Shown one piece after another: positions 12,101 through 50,790 of a DNA stretch of 64,000 nucleotides (its first letter is position 1; every line of letters begins with the position of its first letter). The notes beneath the pieces were generated by a model that worked only from the letters and a program-made list of their open reading frames with translations, searched no databases and had not been told where the DNA came from. Made by a program: the position numbers and the translations under genes. The stretch is from Aureococcus anophagefferens (taxonomy: Eukaryota > Sar > Pelagophyceae > Pelagomonadales > Pelagomonadaceae), in NCBI RefSeq assembly GCF_000186865.1, contig NW_008705565.1, forward strand, positions 2,029,244-2,093,243, written 5' to 3'.

Positions 12101-13334
12101 GCGGCGCGGTCGCGCGCGTCGACGCCGGCGATCTTCAGGCCCTCGCCGACGGGCGCGCGGAGCGCGGACGCGGCCGCGGGGGGCCGCTCGGCGGCGAGCG
12201 CGACGCGGCGCCGGTGCGCGGCCTCGTTGAGCTTCATGAGCGACCGGCAGGCCTTGCCCGCGACGCCCTTCCCGAAGGCCTTGACGAGGTCGCGGTCCGT
12301 CGACGTCTCGAGGCGCGCCGCGAGGCGCTCGCCCGCGCGCTTCGCCGCGCCCGCCGCGCCGCCGTCGTCGCGGATCGCGCCCGGCGCGCGCGCGCTCCGC
12401 GCGGCCGCCGCGAGCGCCTCGCAGTCCTCCATCAGCGCGCGGAGCCGCCGGTCGAGCGCCGTCCGCTCGTCCCGGAGCTTCGCTCGCCGCCGCCGCTCGC
12501 CGCCGGCGGCCTCGTAGGCGCCGTCGAAGACGCCGTGCGCCGCCTCGCTCCGCCAGGCGCGGACCCTGACGAGCCACGCCTGCGTCGCGACGAGCGCCGC
12601 GACCCACGCGTCGCGCGCCTCGGGCGCGGCGCACGCGAGGCGCACGCGCGCGCCGGACGCGGTCTCGATGCGCAGCGCGTGGCGCCGGCCCTCGCTCTGG
12701 TCGCCGACGACGACGTGGGCGTTCGCGTCGACGACGTAGGTCGCGACCTGCGCGTGGACATCAAATCTTCAACCCGACTTCAATGTGAGCGTATTGACGC
12801 AAGCTCTTCGGCTCTGCTTCGAGAACTCGACGAGAGCGATCGATTCGTCCAAAAATCAGCCGAATCGACTTCGATGTGACCGAGCTAGAGAATTTCAAAG
12901 TTTGGTCGGGACGTCCCGAACCAGTGGTCGATTTCCACACAGGTCGCGACGTGGGGCCCCGGGCCGCCGCCCTCCGCGACCTCGAAGAGCTTGAGCTTGC
13001 CCGCGACGAGCGTCGCCTCGCGGTCGCGCCACGACCCGCCGCGCTTGCTCCCCTTGCGCTGGTACACGGGGCCCGCGTGGTCCTTGGGCGGCGGCACGGC
13101 CGCGCAGCGCTTCGCGTTGAAGTGGGAGCACTTGGGCACGCCGCACGACGCGCAGTGCCAGAAGCCGGCGACGGCGTGCTCGACGAAGATTTCGCAGGAC
13201 CGCGCGTCGCCGAACGGTTGCGAGCCGTAGAGCGATTTTGAGGACTTGCTCGAGATGAGCTTCGGGGGCGGTCCCTGGCGGCTCCGCGTGCTCGCCACGG
13301 CCCCGGTCGTCGCGGAAGTTCCACAGCAGGCCAT
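9184..13334 (-). CDS. Formin with N-terminal PH domain, intron is an introner
   Basis: Two exons (13334-12951 and 12747-9184) give 1,315 residues. The N-terminus has a Cys/His cluster (FWHCASCGVPKCSHFNAKRC), then a PH domain from about residue 82 to 190. The introner at 12748-12942 splits this PH domain; splicing GPH to VATYVVDANAH restores it, with the WVAAL helix closing it. A middle Ala-rich region contains a KYRKLLKMGMP segment (WASH/CCDC53-like motif). The FH2 domain starts near residue 850 with KLKALWWEPL and includes the LALVVGNAVNAG and SLLRFLAELAR signatures. FH2 nucleates and processively elongates actin filaments. A classical long FH1 poly-Pro tract is not apparent. The C-terminal tail is acidic. 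The ATG (MACCGTS) is the first in frame after a stretch opened only by GTG. Confidence 0.85.
12748..12942 (-). mobile_element. Introner element D (type 2 ends), intron 12748-12950 of formin
   Basis: The element is 195 bp. It is flanked by the 8-bp duplication GTCGCGAC at 12740-12747 and 12943-12950. Its right end on the plus strand is GATTTCCACACAG and its left end is a diverged copy (CTGCGCGTGGACATCAAAT). The core CGTCCAAAAATCAGCCGAA lies at about 12847-12865. On the gene's strand the upstream duplication supplies GT and the element's last bases CAG supply the acceptor. Splicing leaves one copy of the duplication in the mRNA and restores the PH-domain frame. Confidence 0.88.
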
Positions 13335-13885
13335 GCTCTCGTACTCGATCGATCGATCTGTCCCGGTCGTCGCCGTTTTCCACACTCAGGTAACATCGGC
13401 CGCGGGCTCTTGAGGCAAAAGCTTATGGTTCTGCGCGTATCGAGTGTGCGCGCGCGACGCGTGGCGCACGCCGACGGCCGGAGACGATTGCAGCAGCATC
13501 GCTACGACGTGCGCGACGCGCGACGCGATTGGGGCGACCCCGTTCGACCAGGGGGCGGCGCGCGACGACTTGCAGGACGGCGACGCCATGAAGAGCACGC
13601 CGTCGAGCGCTGGCGCCGCGACCGCCGCGCGGCACCGCTTCGACACCTTCTCCAGCGTCCGCGGGACCGAGATGCCCCCCGCTCGGGGACACGGGGCGCC
13701 CCCGCGAGCGCCACTTCATTTTTTGGCAAAGAAACGAATGCTCGCACCCACATGACCTGGAAACGAATGCTCGCACCGAGAGAGGTCCCGCGCGCGCTGC
13801 GATCCAGGCGCGCAGGCCGCGCCGGCTCGAGCCATCGTGCTCGCCGGTGCGCCGGTTCGCGCACCTTGGCCTCTGGTCGAGTGCT

Positions 13886-13937
13886 GCGCATGCGCGCACT
13901 GCATGGCGATGCAGTGCGCATGCGCGCGGTCAGCGGA
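13886..13937. repeat. Palindromic alternating purine-pyrimidine tract
   Basis: Two GCGCATGCGC-type tracts flank a short GGCG centre, with arms CACTGCAT and ATGCAGTG pairing around it. The inverted repeat is perfect for at least 11 bases per arm and is composed of alternating purine-pyrimidine steps, which favour cruciform or Z-DNA structure. Confidence 0.6.
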
Positions 13938-14099
13938 CGCGCAAGCGATGCCTCGCCTGGCTCAACGGTACACGCCCCGAGGAGGCTCTCCTCTGCGTTT
14001 TCCCTCGTGAGAGGTCTTTTCCGCGCGGTTTCTCGAAAAAGAGTTTCCGCAAATCTACGCGCGTCGTCACTCCACGACGCGCAAGCTCACGTCGCCTGC

Positions 14100-14520
14100 C
14101 CTGAGGTTGGCCTTCGGGTCTGGGCAGAGTGCGCGACGTCCCGAGAGGCTCCGGGCGTTGGGCTCCCCGCCGGACTGGGGTCAGCAGCCCCGCCTGCTGC
14201 CCTGGCCGCGAAACCCCGTTCGGTCGACCGAGCGGGGGGACGCGGCAGGTCCGGAGGCTTACCCGGCGTCACTCGGCCACGAGGCAGCGAGAGCGCTGGA
14301 CCAGCGCGCTCTTTGGGGTCCCTCACCCCGGACGTGGCGCGCCTAGGCGCTCCTCCCAGCGAGAGTCCGGTTCCCCCGTGGGTCTCGGCTAGGCCCGGGC
14401 TAGCAGTAAGCGACTCCAGTGAAGAGTAGACCCGAGGGGCAAGGAGTACCGTCCGAGGGCGCAGCCCGAGGACGGTGCGACGCAGCCTCGAGCGGTCTAC
14501 TCTGAGTGGAGTCACCCTTC
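14100..14520. ncRNA. Unclassified highly structured region, candidate ncRNA
   Basis: Several strong hairpins are nested here. Arms at 14412-14432 and 14494-14513 pair over about 20 bases with small mismatches, enclosing a second hairpin (ACCGTCC at 14448-14454 with GGACGGT at 14470-14476). Further stems are CCCCGTTCGGTC with its complement (14214-14237) and GCGCTGG-A-CCAGCGC (about 14293-14310). I could not match it to tRNA, 5S, SRP, RNase P, U-snRNA or a group II domain V. The pairing does not show which strand would be transcribed. A TATATATA motif near 14637-14646 and an A5 run at 14035-14039 would fit a minus-strand Pol III unit, but that is conjecture. Confidence 0.3.
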
Positions 14521-14739
14521 CGCCTCCTGCATTCTGCTGGTCATGTTTTCTCTCTGCCGTCGCTCTGTGAGGCGTCGTCGAAGTAGGGGCCCATCGTCGA
14601 CCCCCCTTATTTTAAATCTTAACTCTAGTTATTCGTGATATATATCCTTCCGGCGTTGTGTTAAACGCATACGTATGCGGGATCGAGTGGCTGTGAGAGC
14701 TCAGAAGCGCACTGACAGCCGGTTCCCAACCCACCCCGC

Positions 14740-15782
14740 ATGGCGGGCGACGAGGACTGGGCCCCGGGCCTGGTGCCGTGGGGCATGGAGCAGCCCTCCC
14801 CGGGCCCCTCCCCCTCTCGCCCGAGCGTGTCCGTGACGGACCGTGTCTCGAGCGCGCGCGAGAGCCTCGGGGGGCTCTCGCTCTTCGACGACGAGGACCT
14901 CGCGGACCTCGCGGGGTCCGACGACGGGCTCCTCGACTTCCCGGAGTTGCCCGTCGAGGAGACGTCCTTCGAGGACGCTCCAGCTGCTTCGAGGACGAAA
15001 AGGCTGAGGAAGCCGCGGACGCTCATGAACGTGTCCGACACCAGCGGCCGGAGGTACGCGTCCCAAGCCCCCCCCCCAGCCTCCCCACCCGCCCCGCGCG
15101 ACATCTCCAAGGGCGTCGCGCCCGCGCGGGGCCGCGGGGCTGGGCCTCCCGGGGCGCGCCCCGCCGGCCGGCCGGCCGGCCGGCCGGCCGGCCGGGGCCG
15201 GGGCCGGTGCCGGGATCGTCTCGGCGCGCCACCGCCGCCACGACCTGTACCCGCTCCCCAGCCACCTGTACCCGCTCCCGCACCTCCACCACTCCCTCGG
15301 GGCGCTCCTCCTGCTGGGCGAGGGCGAGGAGCCCCTCCTCTTCCCCACCCTCGACCATCGCTTCCTCGCACCGATGCGCCCCGAGTTGAATCGGTCAAAA
15401 ACGCCACTGGTGCGCCCACCCCCACCCCTCATCATACCTTTCACCACATCCCTCCCTCATAGGTCTGAACTCCTACGACTCTACGCTGAACAGAATTTTC
15501 TTTTCGGGCTACGACGGCGAGGACGTCGACCTGTTCCGCGTCGCATGCGAGGCCCAGGTCAAGGCCGAACTCCAAGCAGGCCGAGCTGTAGCGCCCGTTG
15601 ACGCGCTCTACATGGTCAACCACGCAGAGCGCGTCTCCTGTTTAATCCTCTACATGCAGACGGCAACGTGCCTCGACAACCCATCCCGGATGTATGCCCC
15701 CACCGGCATCAAAAAAAATCTTGACTCCATTCAGTCATATCTACGGTCGGGCCAGCGTCCCCCTTTTTTTTACACTTTTTGA
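14740..15782 (+). CDS. Unknown protein, about three exons, structure not fully resolved
   Basis: Three stretches look coding. Exon 1 (14740-15053) encodes an acidic segment with LFDDEDLADLAG and FPELPVEETSFED. A 58-bp intron (15054-15111) puts the next exon in a frame reading HDLYPLPSHLYPLPHLHHS and LLLGEGEEPLLFPTLDHRF. A last exon from 15463 reads IFFSGYDGEDVDLFRVACEAQ and ends at TGA 15780-15782. The frame does not close between exons 2 and 3 with canonical GT-AG sites (GT at 15394 is one phase off), so a sequencing error, a non-canonical donor or another exon is needed. A (GGCC)n tract at about 15163-15196 lies inside exon 2. No family recognised. Confidence 0.45.
15163..15196. repeat. (GGCC)n simple repeat
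   Basis: A run of about eight GGCC units lies in the second exon of the unknown gene at 14740. Its copy number would be prone to sequencing or replication error, which may matter for the frame of that gene. Confidence 0.85.
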
Positions 15783-15812
15783 CTTGAGAGTTCGCAACTT
15801 CGTGAAATCATC

Positions 15813-16328
15813 ATGCCCATCGACTACTCGAGATTTGACCGAATTGGTGATTCTGAATCCGACGAAGAGGTCGAAGGACAGGCTCGCCTCCCGAAGGGAT
15901 TGCAAGGGCTATCGGTCGAAGAATTATTGGATTACGCGAAGCGCCGCGAATCGCAAGCCGAAGCCGAGCGCGCGAACTCGAGCCCCCCCGACGCCGTCGA
16001 GCGCAAAGATGAACAGACCGCCGACGGCGTCGAGCGGGTGCCCCGTCGCCTGCGCTCGCTGTCCGGTATCCCGCAGTACGAGACGATGTACGCGGGCTAT
16101 CTGGGCGGGCTCTTTGAGTCTAAAGGGTCGATGGAATTCGACGAGGCTACGGGCCTGCTTGCGACGATCAAACACGAGCCCGAGCATCCGTTCGGCGATC
16201 TGGTTTTGAGGAACGACCAGGCGAAAGCGTTTCTCGAAGAGCTGTACGACTCGTGTTGGATGAAGAAGCAACTGATCCAGATTGCCTTGGAGTGGTACGC
16301 GTCCTGGTCAAGTACATACGCACCATGA
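15813..16328 (+). CDS. Hypothetical protein with Cdc37-like N-terminal motif
   Basis: The frame encodes 171 residues starting MPIDYSRFDRIGDSESDEE. This closely resembles the N-terminus of the MYND-Aha1 protein at 32421 (MPVDYSKFDSIEDSDEE) and the client-kinase-binding start of Cdc37 (DYS-x-(W/F)-D-x-I followed by acidic residues). The rest is helical, with GLQGLSVEELLDYAKRRESQ and AKAFLEELYDSCWMKKQLIQ. The C-terminus may be incomplete: a GTAC donor-like site follows LEW, and an open stretch near 16417-16617 (NGIIEPLSIAGYFR) could be a later exon. Function unknown; an Hsp90-related role is only suggested by the motif. Confidence 0.55.
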   Translation: MPIDYSRFDRIGDSESDEEVEGQARLPKGLQGLSVEELLDYAKRRESQAEAERANSSPPDAVERKDEQTADGVERVPRRLRSLSGIPQYETMYAGYLGGLFESKGSMEFDEATGLLATIKHEPEHPFGDLVLRNDQAKAFLEELYDSCWMKKQLIQIALEWYASWSSTYAP

Positions 16329-16601
16329 GCGGCGAAAATTGCTCGAGTAGTACCGCGGCGCGTAGATTAACAGCGCGCTGGCAGATGATCGCCGGCGGGG
16401 CTGCAGGAAGCCCTGGTTGCCCGCGGGCGCGGGGGGCAAACAAGCCAATGTTGAGGAGCAGTTGAGGAGCTGGCTCGGTCATCGACGTCTGGGAGCTCGT
16501 CGCCGCGCCCCGGCGCCCGCGGCTACCTGCGGCTTCGGGAGCGCCTGCGAGCCCACGGTCAACGGCATCATCGAGCCGCTGAGCATCGCGGGCTACTTCC
16601 G

Positions 16602-18221
16602 ATGTCGGCGCTCGTGACGCCGGCGCCGGCGCCGAACGCCGAGGCCTACGACCTCTGGCACGCGGCGAGCCCGAGCAGTCGCCTCGACTTCCTCGACGGG
16701 CCGGGCATGCGGGGCCTCGCCGTGGCGCTGGCGTGCTACGACCCGCAGCTCGTGGACCTCGAGCGCCGCGGCGCGGCCGGCGGCCCGGGCTCGCCGGAGC
16801 GCGCGCGCATCGAGCGGCGCAACGAGGTCCTCGCGTGCGCGGAGCTCCCGCGGCTCTTCTACGCGGCGATGCGGGCGCGCGACGACGGGCGCGCGCGCGG
16901 CGACGTCGACGCGGCGCTCGCGGACCACGACTTCCCCGGCGGCGCCGGCGCGGGCGCGGCGCCCGGCGGGTCGTCGTTCTTCTCGGACCCGGAGCCTTGG
17001 CGCGTCGAGACGGCCTACGACCTCTGGCGGCGGCGCGACGCGGTGCGCGAGGTCGCGGAGTGGTGCGGCGCGCGGACGCTGCGCACGTCGAGCCGGAGGG
17101 GCTTCTCCGCGGCGGAGCAGAACGAGAACTACTCGCTCGACAACCACCGGTCCATGGCCCGGGACCGCGCGCGCGTCGCGGGCTACGCGGGCGCGCTCCG
17201 CCGCGCGGCTTCGCGCGGCGGCCGCGCGCTCGACGTGGGCTCCGGGCCCTTCTGCCTCCTCGCGCGCCTCGCCCTCGCCGCGGGCGCCGACGAGGCCGTC
17301 GCCGTCGAGGCGAGCGGCCGAGCGGTCGCGGAGGCGCGGCGCTACTGCGACGACGAGGCCGCGGGCGGGCGCGCGCTCGCGCGCGAGCTGGAGAAGACCG
17401 CCGCGGCGCGCTGGGGCCGCGACGCCGCCGCCGCGGCGCCGCCGCGGGTGACGCGCGTCGACGCGACGGCGTCCGGCTTCGTCGCGGCGCTCGGGCGCGG
17501 GAAGACGCTCGAGGTCGTCGGGGGCCCGAGCGGCGGCGCGGCGCTCGCGGGCCGGCCCTTCGACGTCGTCGTCCACGAGATCCTGGGCCACGTCGCGTCG
17601 GCCGAGGGCGCCTGCCGCGCGATCCACGACCTCCGGAGCCGGGGCAAGTGCGCGCCGGGCTGCGCGTTCGTGCCGCGGCGCGCGGCGACGATGCTCGCGC
17701 CGACGTTCAAGCTCGACGCCACGGCGCTGGACGGCGTCGTGCACCGCGCGCTCAACGGCCACCGGACGCTGCGCAAAGACGTCAAGTACCACTGCCGCCG
17801 CTTCCCCCGCGCGTACCTCGCGGCCCCCGCCAAGCCGCTCGAGGTGCTCCGCTTCGACGCGCCGCGCGTCGACGACCTGCTCGCGCCCCAGGCGAAGACG
17901 CTCAAGTTCGACGTCTCGGGCGAGGGCGTCGTCGACGGCTTCCACCTCCACCTCGCCGTCGACCTCGACGACGCCGCGGCCATCGACACGCACGACCGGC
18001 TGACGTCGTGGTCGACGACCTACGTCCGCCTCTGCGACGAGGCCGACGGCGACGGCGCGAGCCGGAACCCGCCCGTGGCGCGCGGCGACGCGGTCCTCGC
18101 GAAGACGCGCGTCGTCTTCGACCGGGACCGGCCGTCCTACACCGTCCGCCTCGACATCCTGCGGAGCGACGGCTCCCGCACGTTCGTGGGCGAGTACGCC
18201 TGGGACGGCTGCGGGCCCTAA
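16602..18221 (+). CDS. PRMT-like SAM-dependent methyltransferase
   Basis: The protein is 539 residues. SAM-binding motif I is LDVGSGPFCLLARLALAAGA (about residues 210-230), followed by VAVEAS (motif II acidic end). FDVVVHEILGHVASAEGA (about 325-342) resembles the double-E loop that binds the substrate guanidinium in protein arginine methyltransferases. Upstream, YSLDNHRSMARDRARVAGY resembles the PRMT helix Y-x5-H-x-x-M-x-x-D-x-x-R that caps SAM. The C-terminal part has beta-barrel-like content. The N-terminal ~150 residues are not recognised and may be a separate domain. Substrate unknown. The start ATG follows closely on possible exons of the preceding gene. Confidence 0.7.
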   Translation: MSALVTPAPAPNAEAYDLWHAASPSSRLDFLDGPGMRGLAVALACYDPQLVDLERRGAAGGPGSPERARIERRNEVLACAELPRLFYAAMRARDDGRARGDVDAALADHDFPGGAGAGAAPGGSSFFSDPEPWRVETAYDLWRRRDAVREVAEWCGARTLRTSSRRGFSAAEQNENYSLDNHRSMARDRARVAGYAGALRRAASRGGRALDVGSGPFCLLARLALAAGADEAVAVEASGRAVAEARRYCDDEAAGGRALARELEKTAAARWGRDAAAAAPPRVTRVDATASGFVAALGRGKTLEVVGGPSGGAALAGRPFDVVVHEILGHVASAEGACRAIHDLRSRGKCAPGCAFVPRRAATMLAPTFKLDATALDGVVHRALNGHRTLRKDVKYHCRRFPRAYLAAPAKPLEVLRFDAPRVDDLLAPQAKTLKFDVSGEGVVDGFHLHLAVDLDDAAAIDTHDRLTSWSTTYVRLCDEADGDGASRNPPVARGDAVLAKTRVVFDRDRPSYTVRLDILRSDGSRTFVGEYAWDGCGP

Positions 18222-18607
18222 ATTCGACTCTTTTTCTAAAATCCGGCGTAGCCAAGTGCGTAGCCGCTGCCGTTAGAGTAGCGTCGAAGCAGGCCTCGAA
18301 GCGATACGAGTGCACCTAAAGCTTCGAGGTCGATGATGCTGGCGAGCGGCCGCCGGCCTGCTCGACCAACGTCGCGTCGTCGCGGTTGTTGGAGCGCGCG
18401 CGTATCTCGCGTCGACCGCGCCCCATGGCGGAGGCCGTTGTGGCGTGTTCGCAGCGTCCGGTCGGGGTCGCCTCGACGCGCGCACGACGCGCGCGCGCGT
18501 CGACGCGCGCGCGTCGCCGACGGTTTCTCGGGGGCTCGGAAGCCTTATGCGCCGCCGCGCGCCGCGCCGTCGCGGCTCCTTACCCCGCCCCTCGCGCCTA
18601 GGTGAAG
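18222..18607. other. Intergenic region, no gene seen
   Basis: This is a 386-base spacer between two plus-strand genes. It is moderately AT-richer at 18230-18260, then Arg-codon-like CGCGCG repeats. No open frame has supporting motifs. It presumably holds the promoter and 5' leader of the sorting-nexin gene. Confidence 0.5.
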
Positions 18608-20510: not shown

Positions 20511-23500
20511 TCAGGCGAAGCCCGGGGGCGGCGGCGGCGGCGGCGTCGGCGCGCCCCCGCGCAGGCCGTCGAAGTCGCGGTCCTTGGCGACTTTGACGAC
20601 GGCGTCGTCGCCGTCGCGGAACCCGGGCTTCAGGGGCAGCGCGGGCCCGACGTCGCCGCTGGCGCGCAGGTCCGCGAGGATGGACCGCCAGAGGTCCGAC
20701 TTGGCGCCGAGGAGCGACGCGTTGCCGAAGACGAAGAGGCCGCTCCGCGCGCGCGTGAGCGACACGCACGCGCGGTTCGACACGGCGAGGAAGCCGACCG
20801 TCGCGCCGCCGCGGTCGCGCTTCGTCGCGTTGGCGCCGCGGCCGTCGTTGCGCACGAGGCTCAGGAGGATGACGTCGTTCTCCTCGCCCTGGAAGTTGTC
20901 GACCGACGACACGCGGACGTCGTCGAGCCCCCGCGCGGCGAGCGACCGCTTCAGCAGGCCGACCTGGGCGACGTAGGTCGCGAGCACCGTGACCCGGTCC
21001 GGTCCGTAGCGCGGCGCGCCGAGCACGAGGTACTCGGCGAGCCGCGCGACGAGCGCCGCCTCGCCGGCGTTCGACTTGGACCTGGGCAGGACAAGAGAGA
21101 TTCAACGTCGCTTCAACGTGAGTGTTCCGCGCGCGCGTTCCGGGAAAAGCATCCACGCTTCGAGACCGTTCCGAGAGATGATCGCCCGTCCAAAAATCAG
21201 CCGAAACGAGTGGAAAACGGCCGAGATATGAGCCTTTCAAGTTGGGAATTTCGCTCTCTTGTCCTGCCCTGACTTGGACGCGTCGCCCTGCTCGGCCATC
21301 GCGTGGTCGAGGAAGAAGACGTTCCGCGCGACGCCGCGCACGAGCGGCAGGTCGCCCGTCGACGGGTGGTCCGCGAGTTTCGGGTAGATGGACCGCACGA
21401 GCCGCGAGATGTTGGGCCGCATGCGCCGCTGGCTCGCGAGCGTCACGTGGTCGACGCCGTTCTTCACGAGGCGCTCGAAGAGCGACACGTCGAGGTTGTA
21501 GCGCGTCGCGAGGCGAAACACGGCCGTGCCGGGCCGCAGCTGCTCGTGGTCGCCGATGAGCACGAGCTGCCGCGTGTGGCGGCCCAGCGCCGCGAGCACG
21601 TGCGCCTCGAGCACCTCCGCGGCCTCCTCCACCACCACGACCTCGGGCTCGACGACGGCCAGGAGCTCGCGGCGCTTCGCGACGGCCGTCGTCGTCAGCC
21701 CGATGACGCGCGCGCCCCGCAGCGCCTCGGCGTCGACGTCGCGGTCCAGGCGGTCGAGCTCGCGCCGCGACCGGTCCAAACGGTCGCGGACCGACGCCAA
21801 ACCGGCGACGGCGTCGTCGTAGAGCGCGGCCGCCCATTGGAGGAAGAGGAGCCGCCGCTCCGGCGTCGGCAGCGCCCAGACGTCGTCCCGGTCCCCGGCG
21901 TCGCGGCGCGGCGCCCGGGCCGCGTAGCGCGGCGCGAGCGCGGGCGGCGACGCGACGCGGAAGACGCGCTCCGCGCGGCGGTCGGGCTTGCCGTCCGGGC
22001 CGTCCTCGCGCTCGTCGGCGCGCACGGCCGCGGCGTTTAACGCGTCGGGGTCGTCCTTCAGCGGCGCGTCGCCGTCGGCGCCGGCGTCGGCCCGGGGCTC
22101 GGCCCGCTTCGGCGCGCCGAGGAGCGCCGCCGGCGCGACGCCGAGCCACGCCTCGAAGACGCAGCCGTCGACGGGCCGCCCGTAGAGGCTCCGCAGCTGG
22201 CGCGGCGTCGCCAGGTCCTCGAGGTCGTCGACGCCCGGGCCCCGCGTCGCCGCCTCCCTGGCGTCCTCCGCGAGGCGCGCCGCGGTCTCCTCGAGCTCCC
22301 GCAGCCGCGCGAGCAGGCTCCGGCGCGCGCGGACGTGGACGGCGCCGAACATGGACCCGTCGCTGCACTTCTTGTCGAGCTCGCGCAGCTCCGCGGCCTT
22401 GTCCCGCAGGTTGTGGTCCGCGAGCTTCTCGGACTTGGACCGGCCGCCGACGCGGATCACGTTCGGCTCGAACTCGAGCACGCCCTCGAGGAACGCGTCC
22501 AGGGCGTGGTTCGTGTAGCACACGACGAGCAGCGGCTTCCCCCGCGCCCCCGCGCCGTTGAGCAGCAGGTGGCGCGCGATGGCGAGGCCCACGTGCGTCT
22601 TGCCCGTGCCCGGCGGGCCCTGGACGACGGCGAGCGACCGCGTGAGCCCGTGCTTGAGCGCGTCGAGCTGCGACGCGTCGAGCGTGCCGAGCGTCGCCGG
22701 CCACGACGCGTCGTCTAAGACGTCCTCGACCCGCGCCGCGGCGCCGTCGACGCGCAGGTCGTAGCTCTGGCCCCTCCGCAGGTACGTCGGGCGCGGCGAC
22801 GTCTTCGGCAGCTCCAGCAGCGTCCGCAGCAGGCCGTTCGACGAAAAAGCTTCTAAATCCAGGGACTGGAGGCTCGCCAGGACCCAGCGGTAGGCCTCGA
22901 AGTAGGTCGCGCAGCAGTCGATGACGGCGTAGGCGCCGCCAAATACCAACGCCTCGCCGTCGTCGTCGAGGCGCGCGTGGACGCGGAGCTTGCCCTTGTC
23001 GCAGCGCGTCTCCGCGACGACGCCGCAGGTCCAGGCGCGGTCGCCCAGCGTCGCCGCGTCGACGACGACGACGAGGCCGCCGCCCATGAGCCGGCTCTTG
23101 TTCATCGCGTCGCCCGCGCGCGACCACCGCGTCTTCCGCCACGGCTCGCGGCCCGCGTCGCACTCGAGCACGCTCAGCAGGCCGCTCCGCGACGGCGCCA
23201 CGCCCACGAGGCGCGCGTCCCGGTAGACGTCGACGTCCCGCGACGCCTCGCCGCGCCGCGCGGCGCGCACGCCGTCGCGGAGCGGGCCCACGAAGTCCGC
23301 GCGGAGCAGCTTGAAGTGCGTCCGCACGTAGCACTCCGCGGTCTGCGACCCGCTGACCTGATTCGGCGCGAGGTCGTCGCCGCCGTCGCCGAGCACGTCG
23401 TCCCGCGACGGGAAGAGCTTGAGGTAGCGGTAGTCGTCGCCGCCCGCGGCGTCGTCGAGGCGCGCGGCGTCCGCGCGGAGGCTCGCGCCGCGGTCGACGA

Positions 23501-24658
23501 CGCGCTTCGCGGCGCCGAGCGCCTCCCTCCAGGCCGGCGCCTTGTCGCGGCGCCGGTCCGCGACGAGGTCCTCCAGCGCCAGCAGGAGGTCGGCCAGCGC
23601 CACGTAGGCCGACCGGTCCCGGTCGAGGCACGCGGACACGACGCCCGCGACGGCGCCGACGGCCGCGGCGTCGTCCGGCGACGCGCCCTGGGACTTCCCG
23701 GGCGGCTTCCCCTTGGGCGGCCGCTTCTCCGTGCCCGCCTTGAGCAGTAGAGCCCGCGCCATCTTCGGCGACAGCAGAAGCGGCGACGCGAGGCACGCGT
23801 CGTAGACCGGGCCCGCGCCCGCCTGCGCCAGCTCGACGAGCTCCGGGTCCGCGAGCGCGCGGAGGAACGCCGCGACGCCGACGAGGGGCCAGTCGTCGCG
23901 CCGCAGGGCGTCGAGCACCTCGTCCTGGCGCAGCACGACGCCGTCGGCGCCGCGATCCGCGAGGCCCACGGCCCACCGCGTCGCCTCCGTGACGTCGCAC
24001 CTGGGCAGGAAAAGGGTGCGAAATTCCCAACTTCAAAGGCTCCTATCTCGGTCGTTTTCCGCTCGTTTCGGCTGATTTTTGGACGAGCGATCATCTCTCG
24101 GAGAGCTCTCGAAGCGTGGGTGCTGTTTCCGAAACGCGCGCGCGCGGAACACTCACGTTGAAGCGACGTTGAATCACCCTTTTCCTGCCCTGCGTCGCAC
24201 GCCGCGAGCCGGCTCCCCGCGCGCTCGACGGCCGCGCCGTCGTGGACCCGGAGGTTGGTGAGCACGCTGTCGACGTGGCCGTAGCGGCCCGGGTCCGCCT
24301 CCGTCGTGCGCACGAGGTCGAGCTCCACGTGGAACGCGCGCTTGCCGAACTTGCCGTCGTCGGGCGCGTCCGACGCCGCGAACGTCACGTCGTCGTTCTC
24401 CCGCAGCCGGCTCGCGTCGCAGTCGCAGTCCTCGAAGCGGAAGTAGAGGGGGCGCTCGCCGCGCTCCGCCGGCGCCTCGCGCTTGATGAAGCCGTACTTC
24501 TCCGCCTTCTTCAGCGCGACGACGCGGCCGCGCTCGCGCGCGGCGCCGACGGCGTCGCTGCTGCCGCCGCCCCCGGCGCCGCCGCCGCCGCCGGTCTTCT
24601 TGCCCCCGGGGCCAAGGGTCCGCCGCCCGCCGGGGCCCAGCACGCGCCGCGGCGGCAT
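20511..24658 (-). CDS. ZNFX1-like SF1 RNA helicase with N-terminal cold-shock-like domain
   Basis: Three exons (24658-24201, 24000-21280, 21081-20511) give 1,249 residues; both introns are introners. Exon 1 encodes a Gly-rich leader and a cold-shock-like domain (about 40-115: KKAEKYGFIKRE, YFRFEDC, DDVTFAASDAPDDGK). The helicase core has Walker A GPPGTGKTH (about 613), CYTNHALDAFLEGV, a VVVVEEAAEV Walker B (about 940), LIGDHEQLRP, ASQRRMRPNISRLV, SSVDNFQGEENDVI and LTRARSGLFVFGN. This motif set and the CYTNHALD box match the ZNFX1 branch of UPF1-like helicases, linked to small-RNA and antiviral pathways in other eukaryotes. Removing both introners gives the uninterrupted strings AACDVTEATRW and DASKSNAGEA. 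A zinc-finger array typical of animal ZNFX1 is absent. The C-terminus is poly-Pro. Confidence 0.85.
21082..21271 (-). mobile_element. Introner element A (type 1 ends), intron 21082-21279
   Basis: The element is 190 bp with terminal inverted repeats GGGCAGGACAAGAGAG. It is flanked by the 8-bp duplication acttggac (21074-21081 and 21272-21279; GTCCAAGT on the gene strand). The core CGTCCAAAAATCAGCCGAA is at about 21188-21206. Upstream GT comes from the duplication and the acceptor from the element's terminal CCCAG. Splicing yields GAC GCG TCC AAG TCG AAC, the presumed pre-insertion sequence. Confidence 0.92.
24001..24192 (+). mobile_element. Introner element B (type 1 ends, body reversed), intron 24001-24200
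   Basis: The element is 192 bp with terminal repeats GGGCAGGAAAAGGGTG. It is flanked by cgtcgcac at 23993-24000 and 24193-24200 (GTGCGACG on the gene strand). Its body is the reverse complement of elements A and C relative to the host gene: the core reads TTCGGCTGATTTTTGGACG on the plus strand. It still provides a terminal CCCAG acceptor on the gene strand, and splicing restores AACDVTEA. Confidence 0.92.
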
Positions 24659-31612: not shown

Positions 31613-32177
31613 TTAGTCGGCCTTGGGCCCGTCCTTCTTCGCGTCCTCGGCGCCGTCGTCGGCGGAGCCGGCGACGAGGCGGCTCCGGTACTGCTCGATC
31701 ATCTCGATCTGCTCGAGCTCGGCGTCGTCGAACTGGGCGTCGCCGCCGGCCTCGAGGTCGCACTGGCTCTCGAGCGCGCGCTTGAAGTCGAGCTCCTCGC
31801 GGTCGAGCTCGTGGCACACCTGGGCAGGAAAAGAGTGATTCAACATCGCTTCAACGTGAGTGTTCCGCGCGCGCGCGTTCCGGAAAAATCATCCACGCTT
31901 CGAGGCCGTTCCAAGAGATGATCGCTCGTCCAAAAATCAGCCGAAACGAGTGGAAAACGGCCGAGAGAGGAGCCTTTGATGTTGGGAATTTCGCACTGTG
32001 GCACACGCGCTCGTAGTTGTAGGTGCCCCCGCCGCGCCTGCATCTCCGGTAGCAGCGCTTGCAGAGGATGACGACGAGGGCCAGGGCCGCGAGGCCGCCG
32101 ACGGCGAGGCTCGTCAGCTCGAGGAACTGCAGGGGCGTGAGCACCCGGTGGGCCAACGCGCTCGCGAGGTCGCCCAT
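31613..32177 (-). CDS. Small single-pass membrane protein, intron is an introner
   Basis: Two exons (32177-32007 and 31819-31613) give 125 residues. The N-terminal part has one membrane segment (LELTSLAVGGLAALALVVIL) followed by KRCYRRCRRGGG, a positive-inside flank. The rest is acidic and helical. Without removing the intron the frame stops inside the element; splicing joins YNYER to VCHELDREEL and gives one continuous protein. No family recognised. It is divergent from the MYND-Aha1 gene with about 240 bases between the two start codons. Confidence 0.7.
31820..31998 (-). mobile_element. Introner element C (type 1, one terminal repeat lost), intron 31820-32006
   Basis: The element is 179 bp. 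It is flanked by the 8-bp duplication tggcacac (31812-31819 and 31999-32006; GTGTGCCA on the gene strand). The left end CTGGGCAGGAAAAGAGTGA matches elements A and B, but at the other end only CTG remains after the body. The core CGTCCAAAAATCAGCCGAA is at about 31928-31946. Loss of one terminal repeat would immobilise it, yet both splice sites are intact. Confidence 0.9.
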
Positions 32178-43665: not shown

Positions 43666-43686
43666 GTGCAGGGGCCCGTTTGATAC

Positions 43687-44162: not shown

Positions 44163-44642
44163 ATGGCCGCATCAACAGCGTCCCCGCCCCCCTCCCCCTC
44201 GAAACCCGACCCGGGGTACTTCGTCGGCGTGCCCGCGTCGGCCCAGACGTGGCCCGGGCCCGGGGGCGACGCGGGGCGCCTGAGCCCGGACATGCTCCGC
44301 GCCTTCGAGAGCGCGCGCGACGGCGACACGGCGCCGCTCCCCGCGGCGGCGCCCCCCTCGTCCTCGAAGGGCGCGAAGGCCCTGTTGAGCATGTTCGAGC
44401 CTCCGGTGACCGCGGCGCCCTCGTCAAAACGGAATCCCTGCGCCCCGGCCGCGCCGGGGCTTCAACGCCAAAACCCGAAGCAGCTCGTTCCGGATACGGC
44501 CTTCGACGCGCTCGCCGGGCGCCCCATCGGGGCCTTCCGCGGCCACGTCGGGAAGCTCTTCTCGAGCTGGTGGACGGGCGCGAACGCCCACACCTACAGC
44601 GGCGCGGGCCTGCCCCGCATCGCCAGCGAGGAGTGGCGTTAG
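44163..44642 (+). CDS. Hypothetical small protein
   Basis: The frame encodes 159 residues from ATG 44163. The N-terminal 40 residues are Pro/Ser/Gly-rich; PGYFVGVPASAQTWPGPGG and LSPDMLRAFESARDGDTA follow. The C-terminal third (PIGAFRGHVGKLFSSWWTGAN then HTYSGAGLPRIASEEWR) has a more ordered look. No family recognised. The AT-rich right end of the hAT-like element lies 100 bases upstream and may influence its promoter. Confidence 0.5.
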   Translation: MAASTASPPPSPSKPDPGYFVGVPASAQTWPGPGGDAGRLSPDMLRAFESARDGDTAPLPAAAPPSSSKGAKALLSMFEPPVTAAPSSKRNPCAPAAPGLQRQNPKQLVPDTAFDALAGRPIGAFRGHVGKLFSSWWTGANAHTYSGAGLPRIASEEWR

Positions 44643-45200
44643 CTTACGCCCTCGGCGGCGCCGCGCGCCCCCGCGCGCCGCGCCGCCGACCGGGCCCAGC
44701 GAGCCCGGCTTCGCACGGTTTGCATCTGTTTGACGACCGGTGGCCCGTCGCCCCTCGGCAAGTAACCCAGGACGACGCGCCCCTCCCGCGCGCGCGCGCG
44801 AAAAGCGCCCGCGGCGGCGGCCGACCCCTAAAATAAATGTGATCTCCTATCCGCGCGGCTACGCGGCGCGGCGCGGAGCCCGCGCGCCGCCCGAGCGCGC
44901 GCGCGCCTCCCTGCCCGCGCGGCCGCCGCGCGCCGCGCGGCGTCGCGAACGGCGGTTTTGTGGGAACCGAGCGTCAGGATCGCATCAGTGGCCGTGCGCG
45001 TCCGGTCGTCCGCGAGTCATCAACTTCAAGACCGTGGATTACTTGGAAGCCGCGAGATCCGCGCTGTAAACTTCACCGAGCGTATCATCCTCGTCAAGAT
45101 TGCCAAAAAACGAGAGGTCATTCATCAGGGTGGTGCCGAGCCTCATTCATCAGGGCTCGTGCAGGGTGGGCAGCCACCCCAGACCTCAAGCACGACGGAG
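44643..45200. other. 560-bp spacer upstream of channel gene, no gene seen
   Basis: GC-rich with CGCGCG runs (44790-44810, 44890-44910), then a less GC-rich section (44950-45150) that likely holds the promoter and 5' leader of the channel gene. The channel frame is open through part of this, but no ATG is present before 45201. Confidence 0.5.
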
Positions 45201-47852
45201 ATGACGGAGAAAGCCCGTCCGCCCCCCGCGTCCCGTCGCCCGACCGCCCCCGCCCCCGCCCCGAGCCGCCCCCGCGCCGCAGGCTACAGGGCGGCGTCCC
45301 CGAACGGCGCCGCCGGCGCGTTCCTGTCCGTGGACGACGATGCCCCGGCCCTGGAGACGGGGTCGGGCCCCCTGGGCCCGACGCGGCTCACGGGCCGCCT
45401 GAGCAGCGCCCTGCAGGAGAGCTTCCGCGGGTCCGTGCGCATGAGCAGCCAGGAGGTCGACGCCATGCAGGAGAGCTTCCGGAAGCGCAAGGCGAAGCAG
45501 GGCGCCCTCGAGAAGGGCCAGTTCCCGGAGCAGAAGGGCGCGATGTTCCCCGTGCTCGACCCGGACAGCGACGCGCGCTTCTCCTGGGACTGCTACCTCA
45601 TGGTGCTCATCTTCTACGTCATGCTGGTGACGCCCTTCCAGCTCTCGTTCACGAACGCGCCGACGCACCCGAAGGACACGTTCACGCTCGGCAGCCCCTC
45701 GGGCTACAACAAGTACATCGGCCTCTGGGTCTCGAACATCTTCGTCGACATCGCCTTCATCTGCGACCTCGTCCTCGCCTTCAACACGGGCTTCTTCGAC
45801 CACAACGAGGGCGAGTGGGTCGTGTCGCGCGACCGCATCGCGCGCGGCGCCCGCGTCCCGGGGTTTCGGGGGGGCGCGTCCATGGGGGGACGCCCGCCGC
45901 GCTTTTTTAGGTGGGCCTACTTCCGGAGCTGGTTCTGGCTCGACTTCCTGAGCGTGCTGCCGTACAACGCGATCGGCGGCGGCAACGCGGGCTTCCTGAA
46001 GATGCTCAAGTGCGTGCGCCTCCTCAAGCTCTTCCGCGTCTTCAAGCAGCCGCGCATCATGGCGCGCATCGCCGCGCGGAACACGATGCGCGCGGGCCAG
46101 CAGGCCGTGCTCAAGTACATCGCGATCCTCTTCTTCCTGCTCCACTGGGCGGCCTGCGCCGTCCGCATGATCGGCTTCCTCACGCTCGACGGCTGCCACG
46201 CCAAGGACAACCTCGGCGACGACCCGGCCATGACCTGCGGCGAGACGATTTTAGCCAAGTACTGGAACCGGGGCATCTGGGCGCAGTACGTCAACGCGCT
46301 CGTCTGGGCGCTCGGCACGCTCCAGGGCGGCACGGACGCGACGACGGTGGCCGAGGAGGTGCTCTGCCTCGTCGTCGGCCTCCTGGGGTGCATCGTCATG
46401 GCCTTCCTCGTCGGCGACCTCTGCAACGTCGTCGGCAACATGGACCCCGTGGGCAACGACTACAGCCTGACCATGGACACGCTCAACAACTGGTTCGACG
46501 AGTCCCAGCTCCCCGTGCACCTGCGCAAGCAGCTGCGGGAGTACATGGGCCTCGCGGAGAAGTCGTTCCGCGACGCGCACAACAAGGCGACGCTCGAGCG
46601 GCTCTCGCCGACGCTCAAGGCCGTCGTCATGCACCACAACCTGGAGCGCGAGGTGGCGAACATCCCCTTCTACGCGGCCGCCGTGACGCGCGCCTACGCG
46701 CTCCAGCCGGGCCGCCGGCTCTCGATCACGCCGAGCGACAACTTCCAGCGCGGCGCGCCGCGCGGCGGCGAGCGCTGCGGCCAGCCGCGGACCGCGACGA
46801 TGATCGAGCTCGACTCCAACCTGGAGATGCTCGTCAAGTACGACGACGGCGAGACGGAGGAGGAGGTGCCCGTGAGCCGCGTCAACGTCCACGGCTACCG
46901 CCTCGGCCCCGCGTTCGAGCGCCAGATGGACGCGTTCATCTACCAGCACGACCGCTTCGTGCTCGCGCTGAGCACGCACGTGAGCACCAAGTTCTTCATG
47001 ACGGGCGACGTCATGGTCCACGCGAACCAGAGCCTCAACACGGAGATGTTCATCATCTCCACGGGCCGCGCGCTCGTCTGGGGCGACAAGTCGGCGAACC
47101 CCGTGTTCTCGTTCACGCGCAAGTCCGTCTACGACACCATCGGCGACGACATCTGCATGCTCACGGTCGCCGGCCGCAGCCCGACGCCGCGCCTCTACAG
47201 CGTGCGGTCGACGACGACGACGGAGTGCTCCGTGCTCGACGGCCCGCCGTTCGTCGAGACCGTCGGCAACGGCCAGTTCTCCGCGTTCTACCGGGGCATG
47301 CGCAAGTACGGCGCCTGGCAGCTCCTCCGCTACGCCATCCTCCGGTCCGTGCGCCTCAAGCAGCGCCTGGGCACGCCCTTCGAGGCGTCGCTGCCCGCGC
47401 TCGGCGCCGGCGCGTGCGAGCCCGACGCCGTCAAGGAGGCCGCGGCCGACGCCGTGCAGGTCCTGCTCAAGAAGGTGCTCGCGACGGACGCGGGCAAGCT
47501 CGAGGGCCTCGCCGAGGTCGCGGGGGCGACGCTCTGCCGGAGCCTCGAGGCCGTGAAGCAGATCCTCGCGGACCCGGCGGCCGCGGCGCTCGCGGAGCAG
47601 GAGGCCGTCGAGAAGGTCACGGCGTCGACGGCGCCCGTCGGCTCCCTCTCCATGTTCCTCGAGCGACCCACCTACCCCTCGGGCCGCTTCTACGCCCCCA
47701 ACCGCCCGAGCCAGGACCAGGACGCCCTCGCGAACCGGAGCTGCTTCTCCCTCGGCGCGGAGGCGCCCCGGGCCGTCCCGCTCCCCCCGGGCGTCAACAC
47801 CGACGGCACGCCCGTCGACCCCGCCGCGCGGCCCTGGCAGCTGACCTGCTAA
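45201..47852 (+). CDS. Voltage-gated-type cation channel with cyclic-nucleotide-binding-like domain and non-canonical pore
   Basis: The protein is up to 883 residues. S1 is near residues 132-150 (CYLMVLIFYVMLVTP), S2 has VSNIFVDIAFICDLVLAFNTGFF, S3 has WFWLDFLSVLP and S4 has LKMLKCVRLLKLFRVFKQPR with regularly spaced basic residues. The pore reads NALVWALGTLQGGTDATT, where potassium channels have T-x-G-(Y/F)-G. A C-linker follows (WFDESQLPVHLRKQLREYMG). The domain near residues 578-690 has the layout of a cyclic-nucleotide-binding fold (DVMVHANQSLNTEMFIISTG) but lacks the clear R-x-A phosphate cassette. A Tudor-like insert (VKYDDGETEEEVPVSRVNVH) precedes it. The in-frame segment at about 45855-45910 between S2 and S3 may be a small unspliced intron. 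Overall EAG/HCN-like; ion selectivity is uncertain. Confidence 0.8.
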   Translation: MTEKARPPPASRRPTAPAPAPSRPRAAGYRAASPNGAAGAFLSVDDDAPALETGSGPLGPTRLTGRLSSALQESFRGSVRMSSQEVDAMQESFRKRKAKQGALEKGQFPEQKGAMFPVLDPDSDARFSWDCYLMVLIFYVMLVTPFQLSFTNAPTHPKDTFTLGSPSGYNKYIGLWVSNIFVDIAFICDLVLAFNTGFFDHNEGEWVVSRDRIARGARVPGFRGGASMGGRPPRFFRWAYFRSWFWLDFLSVLPYNAIGGGNAGFLKMLKCVRLLKLFRVFKQPRIMARIAARNTMRAGQQAVLKYIAILFFLLHWAACAVRMIGFLTLDGCHAKDNLGDDPAMTCGETILAKYWNRGIWAQYVNALVWALGTLQGGTDATTVAEEVLCLVVGLLGCIVMAFLVGDLCNVVGNMDPVGNDYSLTMDTLNNWFDESQLPVHLRKQLREYMGLAEKSFRDAHNKATLERLSPTLKAVVMHHNLEREVANIPFYAAAVTRAYALQPGRRLSITPSDNFQRGAPRGGERCGQPRTATMIELDSNLEMLVKYDDGETEEEVPVSRVNVHGYRLGPAFERQMDAFIYQHDRFVLALSTHVSTKFFMTGDVMVHANQSLNTEMFIISTGRALVWGDKSANPVFSFTRKSVYDTIGDDICMLTVAGRSPTPRLYSVRSTTTTECSVLDGPPFVETVGNGQFSAFYRGMRKYGAWQLLRYAILRSVRLKQRLGTPFEASLPALGAGACEPDAVKEAAADAVQVLLKKVLATDAGKLEGLAEVAGATLCRSLEAVKQILADPAAAALAEQEAVEKVTASTAPVGSLSMFLERPTYPSGRFYAPNRPSQDQDALANRSCFSLGAEAPRAVPLPPGVNTDGTPVDPAARPWQLTC

Positions 47853-48059
47853 ATTTCCGTTCCGGCGTTCGTCGTGGCCGGTCTCCCGGAGCCCCGGCAG
47901 TGCCCCGGCGGCCCGCGACAACCCGCGACGAACGCCAACATCCCTGCGTTGTACCTCACGTTTCCCTCAGTTGAAGATTTAGAACATCCCGGCGCCATCA
48001 CGGCGGGCAGCCTTTTCTCGCGCGCGCGCGAGGCCCCTGTTACATACGCGCCGTCGGGC

Positions 48060-48962
48060 ATGACCATGTCCTACGGCAGCATCGCGGCGGCGGCGCCCGC
48101 GCCGCCGTCGCGGCTCCCGCCGCTGGGGCGGCTCCTGGCGGCGTTCGGCGCCGTCGGCGCCTGGGTCGTCGTCGCGGGCGCCGCGCGGTCGTCGCGGTTC
48201 CGCCCGACGCTCGCGGCGGCCGGCGCGGCCGACGCGGTGTCGGAGCCGGGCTACGCGGTTTCGCGCCACCCCGTGAGCGTCGACCAGGCCCTCGAGGCCT
48301 GCGCCGCGCTCCCCGCCACGCCCGAGACGTACCGCGACTGCCCCGCGGCGGACACGACGATGTGGTGCCTCCGCATGCGGAGCGCGTTCAAGTCCGGGGC
48401 GTTCGACCCGGCGGACTGCGACACGGAGATGTGCCTGAGCATGGCGACGTCGCCCTGCGCTCAGAGCTGCGTCGGCGCGGACGGATCCTTCGCCGAGGCC
48501 GGGTGGTTCGAGCCGTGCGCGTGGGACGCGATGGTCCACTTCGACGCCTTCTGCGACGGCACCTGGACGCCCGCGCTGCCGGCCGCCGTGGGCGCCGTGA
48601 AGGACGGCGACGACGACGCCGCCTACGCCGCCGCCAAGGCCCTGGGCGCGGACGGCGGCAACGACGTCGACGACCCGGACGCGCTCAACAAGTGCGACGC
48701 CAAGGCCTTCTGCCTGGCCTGCGGCGCCGACGACGCGTCGGCGGAGTCGTGCCGCGCGGCGCTGGCGCCCGTCGGCGGCGTGCTGGCCTCCTTGCCCTGG
48801 GGCGACGGGCAAGCGTGGGGCGGCGCGCCCGTCGTCCCAAACCGGCCCGCGGACGCGGGCTACGCGGACCCCGCCCGCCGCCGCCTCGGCCAGGGCGGCG
48901 AGGGCGGCGTCGCCGTGCTCCTCAACAAGGGCGACTTCTGCGGAAACGACGAACGCGCGTAG
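48060..48962 (+). CDS. Cys-rich single-pass membrane (type II) protein
   Basis: The 300-residue protein has one hydrophobic segment (LLAAFGAVGAWVVVAGAA, about residues 28-46) after a short cytosolic N-terminus. The lumenal or extracellular part has about 16 Cys in pairs (CAALP, CPAADTTMWCLRM, CDTEMCLS, CAQSC, CAWD, CDG, CDAKAFCLACG, CGND), suggesting a disulfide-stabilised ectodomain. No family recognised. An alternative ATG is at 48066. Confidence 0.65.
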   Translation: MTMSYGSIAAAAPAPPSRLPPLGRLLAAFGAVGAWVVVAGAARSSRFRPTLAAAGAADAVSEPGYAVSRHPVSVDQALEACAALPATPETYRDCPAADTTMWCLRMRSAFKSGAFDPADCDTEMCLSMATSPCAQSCVGADGSFAEAGWFEPCAWDAMVHFDAFCDGTWTPALPAAVGAVKDGDDDAAYAAAKALGADGGNDVDDPDALNKCDAKAFCLACGADDASAESCRAALAPVGGVLASLPWGDGQAWGGAPVVPNRPADAGYADPARRRLGQGGEGGVAVLLNKGDFCGNDERA

Positions 48963-49052
48963 GCGCCGCGCGACGTAAGGACGACTCGATCGACGTCCCG
49001 GCGGTGATCCCGGCGGCGACGCCCGCGCGGAGGCGCCTCCGCGGTGCGGATT

Positions 49053-50790
49053 TTAGGGCGCGGGGGGGGCGTCGAAGGTCGCGGCCGCGTAGGCGAAGGG
49101 GTCGGCGACGTCGGCGACCTCGCCGCGGGCCGTCGCGAAGCAGCCCGCGCCGCAGGCGAAGCCGGCGCAGGCGTCGACGACGGGCGCCGGGGGCGCCCCC
49201 CCGGCGAGCGCCGCGGCGGCGAAGCGGTCGACGTAGGCCGCGAAGGACTCGCCGCCGACGGTCTCGAGGTTGCGGTAGTTGCCGAGGAGCTCCGGCGCGC
49301 CGCCGCCGTCGCCGACGACGGCCGCGCCCTTGGTCAGCTGCTCGTGCATCCAGCACGACGGCGCGTAGACCGCCGCCGTCGCCGGAAGCTTCGCGAAGGC
49401 CGCCTCGTAGCGCGCGTGGACGCGAGCGCTCGCGGCGCGCTGCGCGGCGTCGAGCCGGCTCCGGAGGTACGACGCCTCGGAGCCGCGCCACGCGGCGAAG
49501 GCGGCCGCGTCGTCGGCGGCCATGGCGTCCGGGTTGATGTCCGACACGCGGTGGAGGAGGAACGCGTCGTCGAGGGCCTGGAACACGACGAGGGGCGCCT
49601 CGACGTAGGGCAGCGCGTTTTCGGTCACGTAGCACCGCCACGCGTCGGCGGCGGCGAATTCGGCCGCGCAGCGCTCGGCGACGCGCCCATGGGCGAAAGC
49701 GAGCTGGTTCCGCGCGTAGGTCTCGGCCCAGGGCGTCGGCGACCCCGGCGCCGTCCCGTCGACGGCGCGGCGCGCGTCCGCGGGCATCGGTAGATCGAGG
49801 TAGACGGCGCTGTCGACGACCTGTGTGGAAATCAAATCTTCAACCCGACTTCAATGTGCGCGTAATTGAACGGTTTAGACCAGACTCTTCGACTGCGCTT
49901 CAAGAACTCGACGAGAGCAATCGATTCGTCCAAAAATCAGCCGAATCGACTTCGAATTGGCCGAGATAGAGAGTTCTGAAGTTTGGTGGGGGGCCCCCAA
50001 ACCAGTGGTTGATTTCCACACAGTCGACGACGGCGAGGAGCGTCCCGCCGCAGGTCTCCCGGACCCGCTTCGCCAGCCGGTCCGCGTGCTGGACGACGCC
50101 GCGGCCGCCCGCGGACGACCCCGAGAACACGACCAGAGTCTCCGCGCCCGCGGCGCCGAGGCCGCGGTTCCGCTCGAGGTCGTCGAAGACGGCGTCGAGT
50201 ATGCGCGACCCGCGGAAGTGGCGCCCGCCCGTCGCGTCCGACGCGCCCCGGTCGCCGACCCAGGCGTCGGAGGAGCAGTACCAGACGTAGACGGCGTGCG
50301 CGTCGCCGAGCAGAGCGCTCTCGCCGTCGCTCAGGATCGTGCCCGGGGCCGCGCCGAGGTGCTCCTTCGAGGCCTTCGACGAGAAGTGCCAGGTCTGGCC
50401 CTTGGCGGCGTAGGCCGCCTCGTTGGCGGCGCACTCGTCCGCGCTCACGCAGGCGCCGCCGCCCTGGAGGTGGACGACCCACGCGGCGCCGCCGCGCGAA
50501 GCGGGCGCGTAGTAGTAGAGGGCCGGGGTGCCGTCGTTGCACACGGCCCGCGGGTCGCCGTCGAGCAGGTGGCGGTCGAGGACCCGCGCCCAGCCGCCGG
50601 GGGGACCGTCGGTGGCCGGGCCGTCGGCCTCGACGGCCAGCGCCGCGGGCGCGAGCGCACCCGCCGGGCCGCGCGCCGCGTAGGCCAGCAGGCAGAGGGC
50701 GGCGCTGACGACGGCGGCGCACCGCAGCGACGCCGTCGGCCGCGTCGACGCGAGCAGCGGCGCCGCCTCCGCGGGGGGCGGGCCGCACAT
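49053..50790 (-). CDS. Notum/pectin-acetylesterase-like hydrolase, intron is an introner
   Basis: Two exons (50790-50032 and 49820-49053) give 508 residues. The N-terminus is a signal anchor (AAVVSAALCLLAYAARG). The alpha/beta-hydrolase region has WVVHLQGGGACVS, CAANEAAYAAKG, FSSKASKEHLGAAPGTILSD, VYVWYCSSDAWVG, HFRGSRILDAVFDDLE and the nucleophile elbow VVFSGSSAGGRG. This layout is that of the pectin-acetylesterase/Notum family of carboxylesterases, which deacylate polysaccharides or lipid-modified proteins outside the cell. The introner joins LLAVVD and SAVYLDLP after splicing. The first ATG is MCGPPPAE; the longer frame upstream starts at GTG. Confidence 0.85.
49821..50023 (-). mobile_element. 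Introner element E (type 2 ends), intron 49821-50031
   Basis: The element is 203 bp with perfect 15-bp terminal inverted repeats CTGTGTGGAAATCAA. It is flanked by the 8-bp duplication TCGACGAC at 49813-49820 and 50024-50031 (GTCGTCGA on the gene strand). The core CGTCCAAAAATCAGCCGAA is at about 49927-49945, as in elements A-D. The GT donor comes from the duplication and the acceptor from the terminal CACACAG. This is the best-preserved member of its type in the window. Confidence 0.93.

What the first reader, a model, noticed from the sequence alone, without database searches (positions are those of the whole stretch)
12748..50031. Five introners whose target duplication always begins with GT and whose last bases give AG
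Introners at 12748, 21082, 24001, 31820 and 49821 each carry an 8-bp target duplication. On the host gene's strand these read GTCGCGAC, GTCCAAGT, GTGCGACG, GTGTGCCA and GTCGTCGA. All five begin with GT, which becomes the donor, and the element ends CAG, which becomes the acceptor. Removing element plus one duplication restores the reading frame in a formin, a helicase (twice), a small membrane protein and a Notum-like enzyme. Introner DNA transposons that co-opt a splice site from target duplications have been described in Aureococcus and Micromonas; here five independent cases show it directly, with mature mRNA equal to the pre-insertion gene. The GT bias may reflect target preference or survival only of spliceable insertions.
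Basis: partly seen in the sequence, partly recalled or inferred. Interest (0 to 1): 0.88.

Follow-up and report, generated by a model that had tools for sequence, protein, structure and literature searches.

The report
Jumping DNA that becomes introns
Five short jumping DNA elements sit inside genes of the brown-tide alga Aureococcus and look built to be spliced out without trace; this is a known phenomenon in this alga, and the rule for where they survive turns out to be GT or GC at the start, not GT alone.

Summary
All five elements lie where stated, each flanked by an exact 8-bp duplication that begins GT on the host strand; each element ends CAG, and removing element plus one copy restores the frame. 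The window is from Aureococcus anophagefferens, where such introners are already described, so the mechanism is known.

What I add is quantitative. A conserved 19-mer of the elements occurs 2,184 times in the 49-Mb assembly. "Always GT" is a small-sample effect: of 1,187 family-B ends genome-wide, the duplication begins GC in 614, GT in 525, GA in 12, GG in 2, not G in 34 (six of eight fetched "not G" cases are clearly GY with the repeat slid). Per available coding site the order is GT > GC >> GA > GG, a splice-donor ranking, which favours survival of spliceable copies over a transposase motif.

Survival alone does not explain the near absence of copies with two non-coding flanks (0 of 118 resolved, 3 of 133 with unresolved ones; 10-21% of control positions). 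Targeting to exons is likely but not shown. GC donors would also explain this alga's unusual GC-AG introns. Splicing itself was not observed: no RNA data.

The parts
12748..12942 (-). introner, family A, 195 bp, in the formin gene; predicted intron on the minus strand is 12950 down to 12748
   Evidence: exact 8-bp duplications and frame continuity
12943..12950 (-). duplication copy that gives the donor, GTCGCGAC (palindromic)
12740..12747 (-). second duplication copy, kept in the exon
21082..21271 (-). introner, family B, 190 bp, in the helicase gene, inside the AAA_12 domain
21272..21279 (-). donor copy GTCCAAGT
21074..21081 (-). second duplication copy, kept in the exon
24001..24192 (-). introner, family B, 192 bp, in the same helicase gene; body inverted relative to the copy at 21082, same splice strand
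24193..24200 (-). donor copy GTGCGACG
23993..24000 (-). second duplication copy, kept in the exon
31820..31998 (-). introner, family B, 179 bp, in a small membrane-protein gene
31999..32006 (-). donor copy GTGTGCCA
31812..31819 (-). second duplication copy, kept in the exon
49821..50023 (-). introner, family A, 203 bp, in a pectinacetylesterase/Notum-family gene
   Evidence: relatives run uninterrupted across the junction
50024..50031 (-). donor copy GTCGTCGA
49813..49820 (-). second duplication copy, kept in the exon

Best explanation
The five are copies of two related families of short non-autonomous DNA transposons (introners) of Aureococcus anophagefferens. Each insertion duplicates 8 bp of host DNA. 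Where the upstream copy begins GT or GC on the gene's strand it serves as the intron donor; the element's own terminal CAG is the acceptor. Splicing then removes the element and one copy and leaves the original coding sequence. Family A has matching inverted ends (CTG...CAG) and so offers an acceptor whichever way it lands; family B has CAG at both ends of one strand only, so it can splice in one orientation only, and sublineages of both polarities exist. Shown from sequence: ends, duplications, donor and acceptor letters, strand, frame. Inferred: that splicing takes place, that a cut-and-paste transposase acting in trans moves the elements, and that unspliceable exonic insertions are lost by selection.
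For: Exact 8-bp duplications at all five. In a sample of 118 resolved copies, 101 have both flanks coding on one strand and 100 of these are frame-continuous after removing element plus one copy, where 1/3 is expected by chance; 114 of 117 with a host strand have GT or GC and 115 of 117 end AG. Genome-wide family-B ends: 1,139 of 1,187 GY. Family A lies 20 one way and 28 the other relative to the gene and its orientation changes 15 times on the tree, family B's 5 (poorly resolved tree, and about five rows carry the wrong family label of my simple rule). Three relatives of the Notum-like protein run across the junction without interruption. Published passages describe A. anophagefferens introners with direct repeats, constant-length inverted repeats and canonical splice motifs (PMC7789003), in both orientations (PMC10228655 citing Huff 2016), and give about 210 bp as their characteristic length (PMC9481584); the introns here are 187-211 bp.
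Against: No RNA data, so splicing is unobserved. L063 is coding on both sides but out of frame and lacks AG; L128 is a true exception with a CTCTCAAA duplication; L069 has flanks coding on opposite strands. 15 of 133 candidate cores could not be resolved or were dropped by eye. No mobilising transposase was linked to the elements. The named A. anophagefferens relatives of the Notum-like protein, P0003 and P0004, have gene models that skip the junction.
Confidence: 0.93

Rival explanations
1. The G[TC] start is a target-site preference of the transposase and owes nothing to splicing.
For: GY in 1,139 of 1,187 family-B ends genome-wide. A weak mirror-image excess at the far end of the duplication (RC in 39 of 117 against 23.4% expected, p = 0.016) leaves room for a mild palindromic preference.
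Against: The rule is one-sided and follows the gene strand. Family A, with equivalent ends, still has GY on the gene strand in both body orientations. Per available site the ranking is GT 1, GC 0.30, GA 0.015, GG 0.002, which is the order of splice-donor strength (recalled).
Confidence: 0.06
2. Random landing; only spliceable exonic insertions survive, and no targeting is involved.
For: Donor ranking and strand rule as above.
Against: This predicts 62-79% of surviving polar copies in non-coding surroundings; observed 0 of 118, or 3 of 133 with the unresolved ones, against 21.5% of random positions in the window and 10.2% in twelve arbitrarily chosen 1-kb stretches. It could still hold if insertions outside exons are strongly deleterious.
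Confidence: 0.3
3. The elements spread as RNA, by reverse splicing of excised introns, not as DNA transposons.
For: It would explain the restriction to exons in splicing orientation.
Against: It does not predict 8-bp duplications or inverted ends, and it keeps the polarity of the RNA, whereas family A bodies occur in both orientations intermixed on the tree.
Confidence: 0.03

Closest known systems
Introner elements of Aureococcus anophagefferens (Huff, Zilberman and Roy 2016, Nature 538:533; text not held, content recalled and from citing passages)
   Same: Same species; short non-autonomous elements with duplications and inverted ends; one splice site carried, the other taken from the duplication; both orientations (passage); length near 210 bp (passage).
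   Different: Nothing found that sets these five apart. I could not compare sequences with the published elements.
Introner family 4 of Aureococcus sp. TARA_AOS_82_MAG_00129 (Gozashti et al. 2022, PMC9860276, Fig. 2F legend)
   Same: Same genus, 8-bp duplication.
   Different: That family carries both splice sites and adds 12 bp to the transcript; here one site is borrowed and nothing is added.
Introners of Symbiodinium microadriaticum (PMC9860276, Fig. 2B legend)
   Same: Inverted ends, acceptor carried by the element, donor co-opted from the duplication.
   Different: 4-bp duplication; another lineage.

Membership tests
Introner elements | Many near-identical copies acting as introns at different places | tested here: met
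   2,184 exact 19-mer cores; ten bodies identical over the part compared, at different loci
Introner elements | Target duplication and inverted ends | tested here: met
   8-bp duplications, inverted ends
Introner elements | Splice sites in place so that removal leaves the reading frame intact | tested here: met
   100 of 101 frame-continuous; 114 of 117 GY, 115 of 117 AG
Introner elements | Spliced in transcripts | not testable with these tools
   no RNA-seq
Introners of A. anophagefferens as published in 2016 | Same species | tested here: met
   named relatives at 95 and 99% identity over 48% of the Notum-like protein
Introners of A. anophagefferens as published in 2016 | Sequence match to the published elements | not tested
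   paper not held
hAT superfamily | 8-bp duplication | tested here: met
   shared with other superfamilies (recalled)
hAT superfamily | Linked hAT transposase | tested here: inconclusive
   PF05699 and PF04937 found nothing, but rang in no control genome either
P-element superfamily | Linked P-like transposase flanked by the same ends | tested here: inconclusive
   PF21787 match on C25; introner-like stretch beside it but no introner ends seen, upstream reads N, adjoining 821 bp single copy; flanks of two relatives not obtainable

The most novel reading that the evidence does not exclude
These DNA transposons are delivered almost only to coding exons, and within exons their survival follows a splice-donor ladder (GT > GC >> GA > GG). 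Because GC is about four times commoner than GT in this alga's coding sequence, introner insertion would be the source of the unexplained 40% GC-AG introns of A. anophagefferens.
Probability: 0.4. Interest if true: 0.6.

Novelty: already known. Interest (0 to 1): 0.34.

Why it matters
Introners are a clear route by which genomes gain thousands of introns at once. The counts here separate two causes that are easily mixed: which landings can be spliced (a graded donor ranking) and where landings are found (almost only in exons). They also tie a long-noted oddity, 39.6% GC-AG introns in this species, called 'an enigma' in 2011 (PMC3033335, passages), to donors borrowed from GC-rich exons.

Tried and rejected
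hAT transposase: PF05699 and PF04937 found nothing in the assembly, but rang in none of the 14 control genomes either, so they say little.

P-like transposase as parent: PF21787 matches C25:178372-178818 (E 1.4e-9). In L130 the frame holds seven TAG (plus one TAA upstream of the query used). A diverged family-B-like stretch lies just downstream (2530-2601, 83-85% to the best copies), but no introner ends are seen, the upstream part reads N, and the adjoining 821 bp is found once in the assembly. An old introner beside the gene is at least as likely as a parent element.

Viral carrier: one IMG/VR contig holds the 19-mer, but it is 39% GC with no element around the match, so I take it as chance. 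A family-A end pattern found nothing there.

Reverse splicing: rejected for the duplications and family A's free orientation.

Rows dropped: 127 non-redundant candidates plus six cores without an end solution; nine of the 127 were dropped by eye for implausible ends, leaving 118. Of these 15, three have no flank over the coding threshold: L019 +1966, L085 +1113 and L062 -1344; the last does not look like an element. Sampling: 8 of 40 scored matches, 30 of 40, and the first 75 of the 100 places listed, of 2,184, along contig C1.

Full report
What is there. On the minus strand, which carries the host genes, each intron would be the upstream duplication copy (GT...) plus the element (...CAG), and the exon resumes with the second copy. 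Two families are present: A (CTGTGTGGAAATCA...TTTCCACACAG, about 203 bp) at 12748 and 49821, and B (CAGGGCAGG...CCTGCCCAG on the splice strand, about 192 bp) at 21082, 24001 and 31820. The spliced open frames are 1,332, 1,310, 299 and 543 aa. Pfam finds FH2 in the formin ORF, AAA_11 and AAA_12 in the helicase, AAA_12 spanning the 21082 junction, and pectinacetylesterase, the family of Notum, at 49821.

Where it comes from. Of 13 relatives of the Notum-like protein, the closest named ones are two 'pectin acetylesterase [Aureococcus anophagefferens]' records, 95 and 99% identical over 48% of the query. Their gene models skip the segment at the junction. P0001 (95%), P0002 (68%) and P0005 (53%), from unnamed contigs, run across it without a break; whether those contigs are genomic or transcripts I do not know. 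The assembly has 49,050,692 bases in 86 contigs.

How many. The 19-mer CGTCCAAAAATCAGCCGAA occurs 1,108 + 1,076 times; the reversed control pattern 0 times.

Sample. From 68 loci around matches, 40 stretches at further places listed along contig C1 (together with the loci the first 75 of 100 listed) and the window, I obtained 127 non-redundant candidates and six unsolved cores; nine candidates were dropped by eye, leaving 118. A codon model trained on the window was applied to 180 bp on each side. 101 have both flanks coding on one strand, and 100 of these are frame-continuous after removal of element plus one copy. 16 have one coding flank, one has flanks on opposite strands, none has two non-coding flanks. 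For the 117 with a host strand the duplication begins GC in 64, GT in 50, TG, GA and GG in one each, and 115 elements end AG. By my reading the TG case (L002) becomes GT with AG if its 9-bp repeat is slid by one; the GA case (L003) is frame-continuous; the GG case (L063) is out of frame and lacks AG. Phases of the 100 are 48, 20 and 32 for 0, 1 and 2. If retained, 83 of 100 would bring an in-frame stop.

Genome-wide donors. Patterns anchored on the family-B 5' end count GC 614, GT 525, G-A/G-G 14 (12 GA, 2 GG) and not-G 34: 1,187 in all, 96.0% GY. All 34 not-G cases begin with C or T, none with A, as expected if the repeat is mostly slid by one base. I could fetch nine of the 48 exceptions. 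Of eight not-G cases, six (L121, L122, L123, L124, L126, L127) are clearly GY with the repeat slid by one or two bases, L125 only loosely so, and L128 is a real exception. The GA case L129 is frame-continuous, though its two copies have diverged. One of the two GG cases is L038, which reads GT when its end is placed one base over. Against coding-sense availability in the window (GT 4.3%, GC 16.5%, GA 6.5%, GG 9.4% of 39,331 positions), the per-site rates are 1: 0.30: 0.015: 0.002. GT is favoured about three-fold over GC, yet GC wins in number because it is common. Availability rests on one window.

Target preference or survival. Three lines favour survival of spliceable copies. The ranking follows splice-donor strength. 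The bias is one-sided: the far end of the duplication has the mirror-image RC in 39 of 117 against 23.4% expected, a weak excess (p = 0.016) that leaves room for a mild palindromic preference. Family A, whose ends are equivalent, lies 20 one way and 28 the other relative to the gene, with 15 changes on the tree; family B needs 5 (the tree is poorly resolved, its bootstrap had not settled, and about five rows carry the wrong family label). Against survival alone: 0 of 118 (3 of 133 with those unsolved or dropped) have two non-coding flanks, against 21.5% of 3,762 random positions in the window and 10.2% of 384 positions in twelve arbitrarily chosen 1-kb stretches. In the youngest family-B group, 28 copies, 26 have both flanks coding and all 28 are GY. 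Random landing with loss of unspliceable exonic copies only would leave 62-79% of survivors in non-coding surroundings. So landing is biased to exons, or insertions outside exons are strongly selected against. I prefer the first; it is not shown. Enrichment of introners in genes is published for 161 of 175 genomes (PMC9860276, section 9).

GC-AG introns. A 2011 survey gives 39.6% GC-AG introns for A. anophagefferens and 22.2% for Micromonas pusilla, against 2.7% in Micromonas RCC299, and calls their origin an enigma (PMC3033335, passages). Donors that introners borrow from GC-rich exons account for this in kind. Five papers in the library hold both 'introner' and 'GC-AG'; in the passages I read of four of them none makes this link. 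PMC4770533 was not opened and Huff 2016 is not held, so the link may be in print.

Mobilising enzyme. Not found. A P-element-like RNase H domain lies on C25 in a frame with seven TAG, and two distant relatives (27% identity) with open 563-aa frames lie near the ends of C2 and C11. The link to introners is unproven.

Verdict. A correct observation of a known phenomenon, in the species where it was described, with the donor rule widened to GY and the selection question partly answered.

Noticed in passing
window about 55540-55673, + strand: A sixth, decayed family-B-like introner in a plus-strand gene: 87% over 53 nt to family B, core with 3 mismatches, coding on both sides and an acceptor-like CAG|GTG at 55673, no clear duplication left.
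   Followed up: partly
L130:1163-2455 (C25); C2:3449022-3449876; C11:1393826-1394680: P-element-like transposase genes: one on C25 with seven in-frame TAG, and two relatives with open 563-aa frames near contig ends, giving equal scores.
   Followed up: partly
L003 and L129: Frame-continuous introners whose donor would be GA (GA-AG introns); 12 family-B ends genome-wide begin GA.
   Followed up: partly
window 51191-51421: A run of 231 N, plus single N at 56664 and 56787.
   Followed up: no
window 56048-56275: Four tandem copies of a 58-bp unit, 83-100% alike to the reference copy.
   Followed up: no
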